A model generated the notes under the pieces. It ran no database searches, was not told the DNA's origin, and saw only the letters and a list, made by a program, of their open reading frames with translations. A stretch of DNA of 64,000 nt from Halothiobacillus sp. (GTDB lineage: Bacteria > Pseudomonadota > Gammaproteobacteria > Halothiobacillales > Halothiobacillaceae): contig JAGXIF010000002.1 in the NCBI GenBank assembly GCA_024635755.1, positions 1 to 64,000 on the forward strand, given 5' to 3'. Below are positions 53,252 to 60,063 of the stretch, in pieces. Positions within the stretch are counted from its first letter, which is position 1; the number at the start of each line of letters is the position of its first letter. A program made the translations under genes and the position numbers.

Positions 53252-56230
53252 ATGCCCGCCGTATTCACTCGCCTGCCACGACTCCGACACGCCCGGACCA
53301 TTGCAGTGGCCATGCTGGTCGCGCTGACGATGTTCGCGGCGGGTAGACCGGCGCTGGCCGACGCGGCACCGCCGCAACCCAGCGCCGCCGAGATGCGAAG
53401 CTGGGTGGAGGCGATGAAAGATGCCCCACGCGGGCCGTTCAGCCGCATTCGTTGGTTCTGTGAGGACGGCACGGTCCGGCCTCCCGAGCCGTATGCCTGT
53501 CGACCACACGGCGGCGGGGTACAACATGGCGAATGGAGCGACCGGACAGTGGCGATCCGTGAGCAGGGCTTTCTGATCGCCACGCTGCTGGCTGACCTGG
53601 ACCCTGCCAATCATGTCGGCGACGACCCTCACCTGGACGCACTGCGACAGATACTGCTCGAACGTTTTCTGATCCGCTTCGACGACGGCTGGATCTTCCA
53701 TCAGGCGCGTTTTTACCGCGGTGCGATCCAGGTCGAGGACGAGCAACGCAAGGCCCGCGAGCTCCTGCTCGCCATGATCAACGATCCGGACTGGCGCCGA
53801 AACGAGCGTTACCTGCTGCTGCGCGAGGCCGTCCGCCTATTGCCGGTCAACGGCGACCAGCCGGCCGCCACCCGGGTGCGGGAACTGTCGACCCGGGTTG
53901 CCAAGGAAGACCCCGACTTCCAGGATCTGCGGGTCAAAATCCACGGCATGCCGGACGCCGGCGATGCCCAGCGCGTTCGCCGGTACGCCCGCGACCAGGG
54001 CAAGACGGACCTGGCAGAAGATTACCAGCGGCTGGCCGACGAGCTCGATGTCCTCTACGAACCGCAGACCGCAATCCGGCGACTGGAGATGCTAGCCAAC
54101 GAAAGTCGCGGCCGGCCGATCGAATCGATGCTGCGCGAGGCGGCCGACCGCCTCGACCGGGCAGGCTCACTCGACATCCGACTGGACCTGACGGCCGAAT
54201 ACGCAACGGCCTGGCGCGGCCGGGTTCTCGGCGACGACCGGCTGCTCGATGCCGTCGACCGACTGCGCCTGCTGCAGGCCGGCCTGGCGCTGGAACAGGA
54301 GGCCTATGCCGTGGGCAGCCGCCTGGCCGAGACGACAGAACAGGCCGACCGGCGCCGGCAGATCGGCTGGCTGGCCGATCTCGCCGCGGCACTCCATGGC
54401 AGCGGGTTCCTCTCCGGCCGCCAGCTCGAGCAAGCCACCGGCCGCATCGACGGCCTGGTCGGCGCCGACGAGCCCCGCGCCGACGCCTGGGCCGCCGCAC
54501 TGCGATATCTCGCGAGAATCCCGCAGTGGGTCCAGCGCGCCATGGGCTACCACTTCGACCCCACCATCGAGCGCTGGTCCATGATCACGCCCCTGGCCAC
54601 CCACTACATTCCCGACCGGCTGCGGGACAGCCCGCTGCTGCCCTACACGCGCGTGCTCGATCGCCTGCTCGAGGACGCCAACGCCCGGCTTGGCATCCGC
54701 CACGATGTATTCGGCGAGGAAACGGCCTCCGGCCTGCGCGCCCTCAATCCCGGCCTGCGGCGCGGCGTACTGCTCGAGGCACCCGACGAACCGAATGATT
54801 TCCGCGAGGACGGCATCTACCTGATGGCCTCGACCACCCCCGAGCTGCCGCCGGTGGCGGGCATTCTCACCCGTGGCGAGGGCAGTTCGCTCTCGCACGT
54901 GCAACTGCTGGCCCGCAATCTCGGGATTCCCAACGTGGTGGTCGACGATGCGCTGATGCCGCGACTCGAGGCCCGTCTGGGCGAGCGTGTCGTGCTCGCG
55001 GTGACACCTCGCGGGCACGTGCAGCTCGCCGCCGACGGCCCCAAATGGGACCAGGTCTTCGGGGCCGATCCTCGCGGCGAGGAGGTGATCATCCGCCCGG
55101 ATCTCGACAAGCTCGACCTCGCGACGACCCAGATGCTGCCGCTGGCGGGACTGCGGGCCAGCGACTCCGGTCGCCGTGTCGGTCCGAAGGCCGCCAACCT
55201 GGGCGAGCTGGCACACTACTACCCCGAGTGGGTCAGCCCCGGGCTGGTCGTTCCGTTCGGCGTTTTCCGCGCGCTGCTCGACCGCCCCATCGAGGCGGGC
55301 GGGCCAACGGTCTTCGACTGGATGCGCGGGGAATACGATCGGCTGGCCGCCATCGAGGACAGCGAACAGCGCCGCGAGGATGCACGAGAGATGCTCGCCC
55401 GCCTGCGCGAGTGGATCACGACCACCGACCCGGGCGAGGCATTCCGGACACGATTGCGACAGGCGCTGGAGGAACAGTTCGGCCGCAGCGACACCCCCGG
55501 CGTGTTCGTGCGCAGCGACACCAACGTCGAGGACCTGCCCGGCTTTACCGGTGCCGGGCTCAATCGCACGGTCGCCAATGTGGTCGGCTTCGAGTCGATC
55601 GTGGATGCCATCCAGGCGGTCTGGGCCTCACCCTTCGCCGAGCGCGCCTATGCCTGGCGCCAAGCACACATGCCCGACCCGGAGCACGTCTACCCGGCCG
55701 TGCTGCTGCAGCAGACCGTGCCCGCGGACAAATCCGGCGTAATGGTCACCACCGACATGCAAACCGGCGATCGCGACTGGCTCACCATCGCCGCCAATGA
55801 GGGGGTGGGTGGCGTGGTCGACGGGCAGAGCGCCGAGGAGCTGCGCGTGCACCGACGCAGCGGCGAGGTCCGCCTGCTCGCCCAAGCCACCGCACCCGCT
55901 CGCAGCGAACCGGTACCGGGCGGCGGCATGCGCCGCGTGCCCGCCTCCGCGCCGGAAGAACTGCTCACACCGACCGAGATCGACCAGCTTCGCCGGCTGG
56001 CCAACGACGTCGAGGCCCGCTTCCCGCTGCCCGCCAACAACGGCACACCACCCCCGGTGGATATCGAGTTCGGCTTCGTCGACAGCCGACTGGTGCTGTT
56101 CCAGATCCGTCCCCTGGTCGAGAACCGCCAGGCCCGGCGCAATCTTTATCTCATTGAGCTCGACCGGGCACAAGAATCGCCGGACGGCGGCATGATCGAC
56201 CTCGACAGCCCTCCCCGCCCCGGCAACTGA
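53252..56230 (+). CDS. Exported glucan-water-dikinase-like / PEP-utiliser swivel plus ATP-grasp protein
   Basis: Signal peptide TIAVAMLVALTMFAAGRPALA-DA; phospho-His swivel GILTRGEGSSLSHVQLLARNLGIPNVVV; ATP-grasp VGPKAANLGEL, VSPGLVVPFGVF, FVRSDTNVEDLPGFTGAGLNRTVANV, VWASPFAERAYAWR; no C-terminal PEP barrel. Confidence 0.85.
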   Translation: MPAVFTRLPRLRHARTIAVAMLVALTMFAAGRPALADAAPPQPSAAEMRSWVEAMKDAPRGPFSRIRWFCEDGTVRPPEPYACRPHGGGVQHGEWSDRTVAIREQGFLIATLLADLDPANHVGDDPHLDALRQILLERFLIRFDDGWIFHQARFYRGAIQVEDEQRKARELLLAMINDPDWRRNERYLLLREAVRLLPVNGDQPAATRVRELSTRVAKEDPDFQDLRVKIHGMPDAGDAQRVRRYARDQGKTDLAEDYQRLADELDVLYEPQTAIRRLEMLANESRGRPIESMLREAADRLDRAGSLDIRLDLTAEYATAWRGRVLGDDRLLDAVDRLRLLQAGLALEQEAYAVGSRLAETTEQADRRRQIGWLADLAAALHGSGFLSGRQLEQATGRIDGLVGADEPRADAWAAALRYLARIPQWVQRAMGYHFDPTIERWSMITPLATHYIPDRLRDSPLLPYTRVLDRLLEDANARLGIRHDVFGEETASGLRALNPGLRRGVLLEAPDEPNDFREDGIYLMASTTPELPPVAGILTRGEGSSLSHVQLLARNLGIPNVVVDDALMPRLEARLGERVVLAVTPRGHVQLAADGPKWDQVFGADPRGEEVIIRPDLDKLDLATTQMLPLAGLRASDSGRRVGPKAANLGELAHYYPEWVSPGLVVPFGVFRALLDRPIEAGGPTVFDWMRGEYDRLAAIEDSEQRREDAREMLARLREWITTTDPGEAFRTRLRQALEEQFGRSDTPGVFVRSDTNVEDLPGFTGAGLNRTVANVVGFESIVDAIQAVWASPFAERAYAWRQAHMPDPEHVYPAVLLQQTVPADKSGVMVTTDMQTGDRDWLTIAANEGVGGVVDGQSAEELRVHRRSGEVRLLAQATAPARSEPVPGGGMRRVPASAPEELLTPTEIDQLRRLANDVEARFPLPANNGTPPPVDIEFGFVDSRLVLFQIRPLVENRQARRNLYLIELDRAQESPDGGMIDLDSPPRPGN

Positions 56231-56255
56231 TTGCGATTCATTCAACGGTTCCGTT

Positions 56256-58684: not shown

Positions 58685-58794
58685 AGGCCTTCTCTCCTCC
58701 GGGGATTACCCGGATAGATAACAAAAGTGCTCGAAACCTTAACCGATAAATCGTGCAAAGTCATGCTGATAGCATCATCAAGGATCGAAAAGCG

Positions 58795-60063
58795 ATGAAC
58801 ATGCCGTTCCAGGGAAGCGCCTACGTCATGCGCGGCATGCTGTTGTTCGCGAACTTCTTTTTGATCATCGCCGCCGTCTACCACCTCAAGCCCGCCAGCC
58901 GCTCGATCTTCATCAGCTCGCTGGGGGCGGACTTCCTGCCCTACGTCTGGATCGCGACAGCAGTGGTCCTGGGCCTGACCATCGGCCTGTACAACCGCCT
59001 GATCGCCTACTACTCGCGCATCCACGTCGTGCTGGGGAGCTGCGCGATCGCCATTGGCATATTGCTGGTCTTCTACCGGCTGCTCAACGACAGTGGCTTT
59101 GTCCAGGCCTTCGCCTTCTACATCTTCGTCGACATGCTCAGCGTGATCCTGGTCGAGCAGTTCTGGAGCCTGACCAACACCATATTCAGCACGATCGAGG
59201 GCAAGCGTTGGTACGGATTGATCGCCACCGGGGGCCTGGTCGGCGGCGTGGTGGGCGGCATCGCCTCGAGCACGCTGATCCGCCAGTTCGGGCTGCAGAC
59301 CATGGACCTGTTGCCGATCGCGGCGGGCATCATCGCCCTGTTGATCGCGCTGACCCTGCTGATGGGGAGGCTGGGCCTCTACGAAGAAAAACCCGGCGTG
59401 GGCAACCACGAACAGGCCTCGACCGGCGATTGGCGGGCCATCCTGCATCATCGCTACCTGCTGCTTATCGCCGCCATCCTGCTGCTCGCCCAGATTGCCG
59501 AGCCCATCATCGAGTACCAGTTCATGCAGATGGTCGAATCGACCATCGAGGGGCGCGATGCGCGCACCGCCTACCTGGGTGCATTCTTCAGCGTGCTGAG
59601 TGCCGTGGCCATCGGCATCAATCTCGCGATCACGCCGCTGGTGCATCGCTGGCTGGGGGTGCTCGGCGGGCTGTTTGTCCAACCCCTGGCCGTGTTGGTG
59701 GGAAGCCTGTGGTTCATCTCCCAGGCCACGCTGCAGGCCGGCGCCTTCCTCAAGATCGCCGACCGTGGCCTGTCCTATTCGATCAACCGCGCCTCGAAGG
59801 AGCTGCTGTACGTGCCGATCGCGCCACTGCTCATGTTCCGCGCCAAAGCCTGGATCGACATGTTCGGCTACCGGCTGTTCAAGGTGGCCGGCTCCCTGCT
59901 GATCCTGCTGCTCACCCAGTGGCTGCCCTGGAGCATCGATGCGGTGCACCTGAGCTGGCTGGTGCTGGGCTTCTGCCTGGTCTGGATGTTCGCCCTCACC
60001 CGCCTGGGTGTTCGCTATCGCGACATCCTCGTCCGAGCCGACGCCATCAAGGCCGGAGGCTAG
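58795..60063 (+). CDS. ADP/ATP translocase-family (Npt1/Npt2-like) transporter
   Basis: LKPASRSIFISSLGADFLPYVWIATAVVLGLTIGLYNRL; DMLSVILVEQFWSLTNTIFSTIEGKRWYGLIATGGLVGGVVGG; about 12 TM. Confidence 0.75.
   Translation: MNMPFQGSAYVMRGMLLFANFFLIIAAVYHLKPASRSIFISSLGADFLPYVWIATAVVLGLTIGLYNRLIAYYSRIHVVLGSCAIAIGILLVFYRLLNDSGFVQAFAFYIFVDMLSVILVEQFWSLTNTIFSTIEGKRWYGLIATGGLVGGVVGGIASSTLIRQFGLQTMDLLPIAAGIIALLIALTLLMGRLGLYEEKPGVGNHEQASTGDWRAILHHRYLLLIAAILLLAQIAEPIIEYQFMQMVESTIEGRDARTAYLGAFFSVLSAVAIGINLAITPLVHRWLGVLGGLFVQPLAVLVGSLWFISQATLQAGAFLKIADRGLSYSINRASKELLYVPIAPLLMFRAKAWIDMFGYRLFKVAGSLLILLLTQWLPWSIDAVHLSWLVLGFCLVWMFALTRLGVRYRDILVRADAIKAGG

What the first reader, a model, noticed from the sequence alone, without database searches (positions are those of the whole stretch)
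53252..60063. Candidate periplasmic ATP-dependent phosphorylation locus: exported dikinase-like enzyme, two exported serine hydrolases and a nucleotide translocator-like carrier
Seen: four adjacent genes. Three encode proteins with N-terminal signals: a swivel plus ATP-grasp dikinase-like protein and two beta-lactamase-fold enzymes with intact SxxK/SxN/KSG triads. The fourth is an ADP/ATP-translocase-family membrane protein. Known: ATP-grasp/phospho-His dikinases use ATP, which is not normally available in the periplasm, and ADP/ATP translocase-family proteins move nucleotides across membranes. Inference: the carrier could supply nucleotide to an exported dikinase that phosphorylates a cell-envelope substrate, with the serine hydrolases acting on the same envelope material. 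Gene order is + + - +, so this is a neighbourhood rather than one operon. I do not know of a described system with this composition.
Basis: partly seen in the sequence, partly recalled or inferred. Interest (0 to 1): 0.82.

Follow-up and report, generated by a model that had tools for sequence, protein, structure and literature searches.

The report
Conserved exported dikinase and ATP-carrier cassette
Four neighbouring genes, found together in hundreds of bacterial species, appear to move ATP out through the inner membrane and use it there to put phosphate on a still unknown cell-envelope molecule; this would be unusual because that compartment is thought to lack ATP.

Summary
The four genes are an exported phospho-His/ATP-grasp dikinase, two exported SxxK/SxN/KSG serine hydrolases and an ADP/ATP-translocase (NTT/TLC) family carrier. 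They form a conserved cassette, not a Guyparkeria accident. A genome scan found at least 566 stretches encoding the dikinase. In the 80 loci read, hydrolase 1 follows it in 74 of 77, hydrolase 2 is nearby in 52 of 58, and an NTT-family carrier is nearby in 31 of 38. The window's other neighbours recur almost only in Guyparkeria. In an even sample of 387 gammaproteobacterial genomes the dikinase occurs in 35; hydrolase 1 occurs in all 35 (plus 2 others), hydrolase 2 in 34 (plus 1), and an NTT-family carrier in all 35. The carrier's best structural matches are the ATP/ADP translocators of Chlamydia and Arabidopsis. All expected dikinase and hydrolase catalytic residues are invariant. The dikinase lacks the pyruvate/PEP domain of PEP synthase and has an N-terminal domain with no Pfam or PDB match. 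Best reading: a periplasmic phosphorylation module fuelled by carrier-mediated ATP export. Export, transport direction and acceptor are inferred, not shown. I found no published description.

The parts
53252..56230 (+). exported dikinase-like protein (DIK), 992 aa: signal peptide, unique N-terminal domain, phospho-His swivel domain, ATP-grasp domain
   Evidence: ORF; Pfam; homologues; model pLDDT 82.6
53252..53359 (+). predicted Sec signal peptide of DIK (MPAVFTRLPRLRHARTIAVAMLVALTMFAAGRPALA)
   Evidence: hydropathy; N-terminal hydrophobic segment in 94% of 114 homologues
53384..54691 (+). family-specific N-terminal domain of DIK (residues about 45-480, mostly helical, with motif RIRWFCxDG..YACxxHGGGxQHGEW and the only two cysteines, C70 and C83); candidate acceptor-binding domain
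   Evidence: alignments; no Pfam match; no PDB fold match covering it
54824..54940 (+). phospho-histidine (PEP-utilizers, PF00391) domain; catalytic His549 at 54896-54898
   Evidence: Pfam; H549 28/28
55175..56134 (+). PPDK_N ATP-grasp domain with invariant K646, R754, D937, E939, Q951, R953
   Evidence: Pfam; fold match to rifampin phosphotransferase ATP domain TMt 0.88
56256..57557 (+). exported serine hydrolase 1 (BLA1), Beta-lactamase2 family, S139xxK142 / S220SN222 / K357SG359, invariant C364 and C372
57791..58684 (-). exported serine hydrolase 2 (BLA2), Beta-lactamase2 family, S88xxK91 / S124SN126 / K240SG242
58753..60063 (+). NTT/TLC (ADP/ATP translocase) family inner-membrane carrier, about 12 membrane helices in the model, invariant K46, K365, D369, R374

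Best explanation
The four genes are a conserved functional module for ATP-dependent phosphorylation outside the cytoplasm. The NTT-family carrier exchanges cytoplasmic ATP for spent nucleotide (most likely AMP or ADP plus phosphate) across the inner membrane. The exported dikinase uses that ATP: its ATP-grasp domain phosphorylates His549 of the swivel domain, and the swivel passes the phosphate to an acceptor held by the novel N-terminal domain. The acceptor is probably an envelope or extracellular polymer, or a precursor of one. The two exported serine hydrolases process the same material, before or after phosphorylation. Shown here: the module, intact active sites, carrier homology and export signals by sequence. 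Inferred: ATP export, phosphate transfer, acceptor type and the hydrolases' role.
For: Linkage: hydrolase 1 next to the dikinase in 74/77 loci, hydrolase 2 in 52/58, carrier in 31/38, across Gamma- and Zetaproteobacteria, Desulfobacterota, Myxococcota and Nitrospirae-labelled MAGs; dikinase-hydrolase 1 overlap typical of translational coupling. Co-occurrence in 387 genomes: dikinase 35; hydrolase 1 37 (all 35); hydrolase 2 35 (34 of 35); any NTT carrier 35/35 against 71/352 in genomes without the dikinase; cassette-type carrier clade 30/35 against 2/352, and both of those two carry hydrolase 1. Retention without adjacency: three genomes of one genus, and Mariprofundus and Desulfobacterium genomes, keep a carrier elsewhere. 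Carrier: profile matches Chlamydia NTT1 at 1.3e-33 and Arabidopsis NTT1 at 9e-28; those translocators are the top fold matches, TM up to 0.82. Dikinase: catalytic His and ATP-grasp residues invariant in 28/28; signal segments and, in 94 of 114 homologues, exactly two mature cysteines.
Against: No direct evidence of localisation, transport or phosphate transfer. NTT-family members can carry NAD, or failed to transport nucleotides when tested (PamNTT4, S. negevensis NTT4; PMC5381601), so substrate and direction are open. The periplasm is taken to lack ATP (PMC11366764), so the model depends on the carrier working as an exporter. In several Mariprofundus genomes only a more distant NTT is found, and in one MAG (locus L085) none. 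The NTT charged positions are not all invariant (E149 in 17 of 24).
Confidence: 0.55

Rival explanations
1. Same module, but the carrier's job is retrieval or exchange of a different nucleotide (for example AMP/ADP import, NAD or another NTP), and the dikinase obtains ATP that leaks or is released outside the cell.
For: Characterised NTTs include importers, NAD carriers and one that failed to transport nucleotides (PMC5381601). The cassette carrier is only 17-19% identical to solved ATP/ADP translocators. Bacteria release some ATP (PMC7432876, abstract seen).
Against: A dedicated, nearly obligate carrier partner fits best with supplying the enzyme's co-substrate; a strict ATP/AMP exchanger would do both jobs at once.
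Confidence: 0.2
2. The exported proteins form an antibiotic- or xenobiotic-inactivating set (rifampin-phosphotransferase-like dikinase plus beta-lactamase-like enzymes).
For: The closest solved structures of the ATP-grasp domain are rifampin phosphotransferases; the two hydrolases belong to the Beta-lactamase2 family.
Against: Domain order is reversed and no rifampin-binding domain is found; the rifamycin phosphotransferase NCBIfam model scores 102 bits against a cut-off of 999; no full-length homologue among 72,556 plasmids, where mobile resistance genes would be expected; many carriers are environmental sediment, groundwater and hydrothermal bacteria.
Confidence: 0.06
3. The genes are co-inherited and perhaps co-regulated but do not share one pathway; the dikinase may use another phosphoryl donor or be a non-catalytic binding protein.
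For: No biochemical link is shown; the distance trees of dikinase and carrier correlate only weakly (Mantel r 0.24).
Against: Near-perfect co-occurrence, including when the genes are not adjacent; every catalytic residue checked is invariant.
Confidence: 0.12

Closest known systems
Glucan water dikinase / phosphoglucan water dikinase (plant GWD, PWD)
   Same: Would work alike: phospho-His intermediate, beta-phosphate of ATP passed to a non-pyruvate acceptor (mechanism in PMC7569903); the order His domain then C-terminal ATP-grasp is recalled for GWD from own knowledge.
   Different: No starch-binding module or GWD-specific Pfam domain is found; exported bacterial protein; a different N-terminal domain; acceptor unknown.
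PEP synthase / pyruvate phosphate dikinase / rifampin phosphotransferase
   Same: ATP-grasp and swivel His domains with conserved active-site residues.
   Different: Reversed domain order, no C-terminal PEP/pyruvate barrel or rifampin domain, carries a signal peptide; scores far below every NCBIfam cut-off.
NTT (TLC) ATP/ADP translocators of Chlamydia, Rickettsia and plastids
   Same: Fold, profile and the C-terminal K-x-x-x-D motif.
   Different: Found in free-living bacteria, 17-19% identity, proposed here to export rather than import ATP.
NTT-HEAT and NTT-HEAT-cNBD proteins of free-living bacteria (Major et al. 2017, PMC5381601)
   Same: Such proteins lie next to the dikinase in many Desulfobacterota and Myxococcota loci.
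   Different: That paper does not mention dikinase or lactamase partners; the window's carrier is the single-domain type.

Membership tests
NTT/TLC nucleotide translocator family (PF03219) | Profile match above the curated cut-off | tested here: met
   50 bits against 21; family profile hits solved NTTs at 1.3e-33 and 9e-28
NTT/TLC nucleotide translocator family (PF03219) | NTT fold closer than to other MFS carriers | tested here: met
   Top four Foldseek matches are NTT1 structures, TM up to 0.82, ahead of all other MFS
NTT/TLC nucleotide translocator family (PF03219) | Transports nucleotides | not testable with these tools
   needs a transport assay
PEP-utilising dikinase superfamily | Catalytic His in swivel domain and ATP-grasp active-site residues | tested here: met
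   H549, K646, R754, D937, E939, Q951, R953 invariant in 28/28; residue roles assigned from own knowledge of PPDK
PEP synthase or PPDK | C-terminal PEP/pyruvate barrel and canonical domain order | tested here: not met
   No such domain in any of 28 members; order is His then ATP-grasp
Glucan water dikinase | Starch-binding module and GWD-specific domains | tested here: not met
   No such Pfam match in 28 members at E up to 1
Glucan water dikinase | Phosphate transfer to a glucan | not testable with these tools
   needs an enzyme assay
Rifampin phosphotransferase | NCBIfam equivalog score | tested here: not met
   102 bits against a cut-off of 999
Beta-lactamase2 (PF13354) serine hydrolases | Profile match and SxxK/SxN/KSG motifs | tested here: met
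Class A beta-lactamase (true antibiotic hydrolase) | Omega-loop Glu and lactam hydrolysis | tested here: inconclusive
   No obvious omega-loop Glu motif seen in the alignments by eye; no sequence match of either profile in the PDB

The most novel reading that the evidence does not exclude
A dedicated periplasmic energy system: free-living bacteria export ATP through an NTT carrier to drive covalent phosphorylation of an envelope component by a dikinase, with two partner serine hydrolases. This would be a new kind of envelope modification, and a function for NTT and NTT-HEAT proteins of free-living bacteria.
Probability: 0.5. Interest if true: 0.93.

Novelty: categorically new. Interest (0 to 1): 0.84.

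Why it matters
Textbook periplasms lack ATP, so envelope chemistry is thought to run on activated lipids or ion gradients. A widespread module (about 9% of sampled gammaproteobacterial species) that pairs an exported ATP-using enzyme with a nucleotide translocator would overturn that for these bacteria. It gives a concrete, testable role to the many uncharacterised nucleotide translocators of free-living bacteria, and points to an undiscovered phosphorylated envelope molecule.

Tried and rejected
Rejected: PEP synthase or PPDK (no pyruvate domain, wrong order); GWD orthologue (no GWD domains); rifampin phosphotransferase; known anti-phage defence (no PADLOC match); plasmid-borne resistance (no full-length plasmid homologue); a Guyparkeria-only accident (flanking genes BCCT, DLH, Band7, NfeD and MoaA are found with the cassette almost only in the Guyparkeria loci, the core genes everywhere).
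Full report
WHAT IS THERE. Pfam gives PPDK_N (residues 642-961, 7.9e-34) and PEP-utilizers (525-563, 1.9e-5) in the 992-aa dikinase-like protein (DIK), Beta-lactamase2 in both hydrolases (BLA1, BLA2), and TLC ATP/ADP transporter (2.8e-13) in the carrier. 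The window lies in a Guyparkeria-like draft genome (G000, contig C23). Naming it Guyparkeria rests on named close homologues (83%) and named loci.

IS THE NEIGHBOURHOOD REAL? Yes. Iterative profile searches of all ORFs in those loci gave: BLA1 immediately downstream on the same strand in 74 of 77 loci with enough sequence, a second BLA-family gene in 52 of 58, and an NTT-family carrier in 31 of 38 loci with both flanks. DIK and BLA1 overlap by exactly 4 bp in 37 of 76 loci and lie within -30 to +60 bp in 64 of 76. The window's other neighbours (BCCT, DLH, Band7, NfeD, MoaA) occur with the cassette almost only in the Guyparkeria loci, which is an internal control. Clustering of the remaining ORFs found no fifth partner of similar constancy.

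CO-OCCURRENCE WITHOUT RELYING ON ADJACENCY. In an even sample of 387 gammaproteobacterial genomes (288 genera), the family-specific N-terminal region of DIK occurs in 35 genomes (28 genera), BLA1 in 37, including all 35, BLA2 in 35, including 34 of the 35, and an NTT-family protein in 106, including all 35. The cassette-type carrier clade (over 400 bits) occurs in 32 genomes: 30 with DIK and 2 (G306, G351) with BLA1, where DIK may be lost or lie in an assembly gap. Fisher tests: 9e-48, 2e-22 and 3e-37; these ignore phylogeny, but the positives are spread over 28 genera. By my count, carrier and DIK lie on one contig within about 10 kb in 25 of the 35. In three genomes of one genus (G095, G236, G343) the carrier lies elsewhere, yet all genes are kept. 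Nine genomes with no carrier near DIK were searched whole: eight have one elsewhere, four of them of the cassette clade. In the family of the window itself, DIK and carrier occur in the same 9 of 27 genomes, including one genome of another genus (the carrier's one further hit there, E 8e-4, is a distant relative).

THE CARRIER. A profile of 24 cassette carriers matches Chlamydia pneumoniae NTT1 (1.3e-33) and Arabidopsis NTT1 (9e-28), and no other solved chain at E up to 0.01. An AlphaFold model (pLDDT 89.6) has those ATP/ADP translocators as its four best PDB matches (TM up to 0.82), ahead of all other MFS carriers. K46, K365, D369 and R374 are invariant, and E254 is always E or D. In the alignment K365 and D369 fall on the NTT KGKAAID motif and E254 on the conserved glutamate of the second half; that these positions are transport-critical in plant NTT1 is own knowledge. 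Major et al. 2017 (PMC5381601) showed that NTTs are widespread in free-living bacteria, often as NTT-HEAT and NTT-HEAT-cNBD fusions of unknown function, without mentioning a dikinase or lactamase partner. Here such fusions lie next to DIK in many Desulfobacterota and Myxococcota loci.

THE DIKINASE. The catalytic His549 and the ATP-grasp residues K646, R754, D937, E939, Q951 and R953 are invariant in 28 homologues down to 49% identity. There is no PEP/pyruvate barrel; the order His domain then ATP-grasp is the reverse of PEP synthase and like glucan water dikinase (the latter from own knowledge). The GWD mechanism (His phosphorylated by the beta-phosphate, then transfer to a glucosyl residue, gamma-phosphate to water) is described in PMC7569903. 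Fold search finds only ATP-grasp and dikinase relatives, best the rifampin phosphotransferase ATP domain. The N-terminal 430 residues have no Pfam or PDB match but contain invariant motifs, so they are the likely acceptor site (inference).

EXPORT. N-terminal hydrophobic segments are present in 94% of 114 DIK homologues (median hydropathy 2.37) and in both hydrolase families. 94 of 114 DIK homologues have exactly two cysteines after the signal, and BLA1 has an invariant pair (C364, C372), as expected for oxidised, disulphide-bonded periplasmic proteins. No dedicated signal-peptide predictor or experiment was available.

MECHANISM. The simplest account: the NTT carrier trades cytoplasmic ATP for AMP or ADP (with Pi); the exported dikinase makes phospho-His and AMP from ATP and moves the phosphate to an envelope acceptor; BLA1 and BLA2, with intact acyl-serine motifs, act on the same material. 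The periplasm is regarded as lacking ATP (PMC11366764), which is why a dedicated carrier would be needed. Shown: the module and intact active sites. Inferred: localisation, direction, acceptor.

NOVELTY. Each protein belongs to a known superfamily, but I know of no described system of this composition. Searches of an open-access library found none; that library misses most subscription papers, so absence is weak evidence.

Noticed in passing
L062:6783-9944, L067:6646-9813, L073:6593-9946, L079:6717-9869, L086:2-3178 (all - strand): NTT-HEAT-cNBD-type proteins of about 1050-1120 aa lie divergently next to the dikinase in Desulfobacterota/Myxococcota-type loci, giving genomic context to this uncharacterised fusion family.
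   Followed up: partly
G210 contig C179:6051-7268: A second, distant match to the dikinase N-terminal domain in a 1416-aa open frame (105 bits), possibly a longer paralogue.
   Followed up: no
window 52124-52936 +: An exported dienelactone-hydrolase-family protein just upstream of the cassette, a recurrent neighbour essentially only in Guyparkeria.
   Followed up: partly
window 60178-62608 -: Ordinary Band 7 / NfeD1b pair (stomatin-type operon) downstream of the cassette.
   Followed up: no
L085:10001-12913: The dikinase homologue of this MAG shows an in-frame stop when its N-terminal part is read from the match start, and its genome shows no NTT carrier: a frame error or a possibly decaying cassette.
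   Followed up: no
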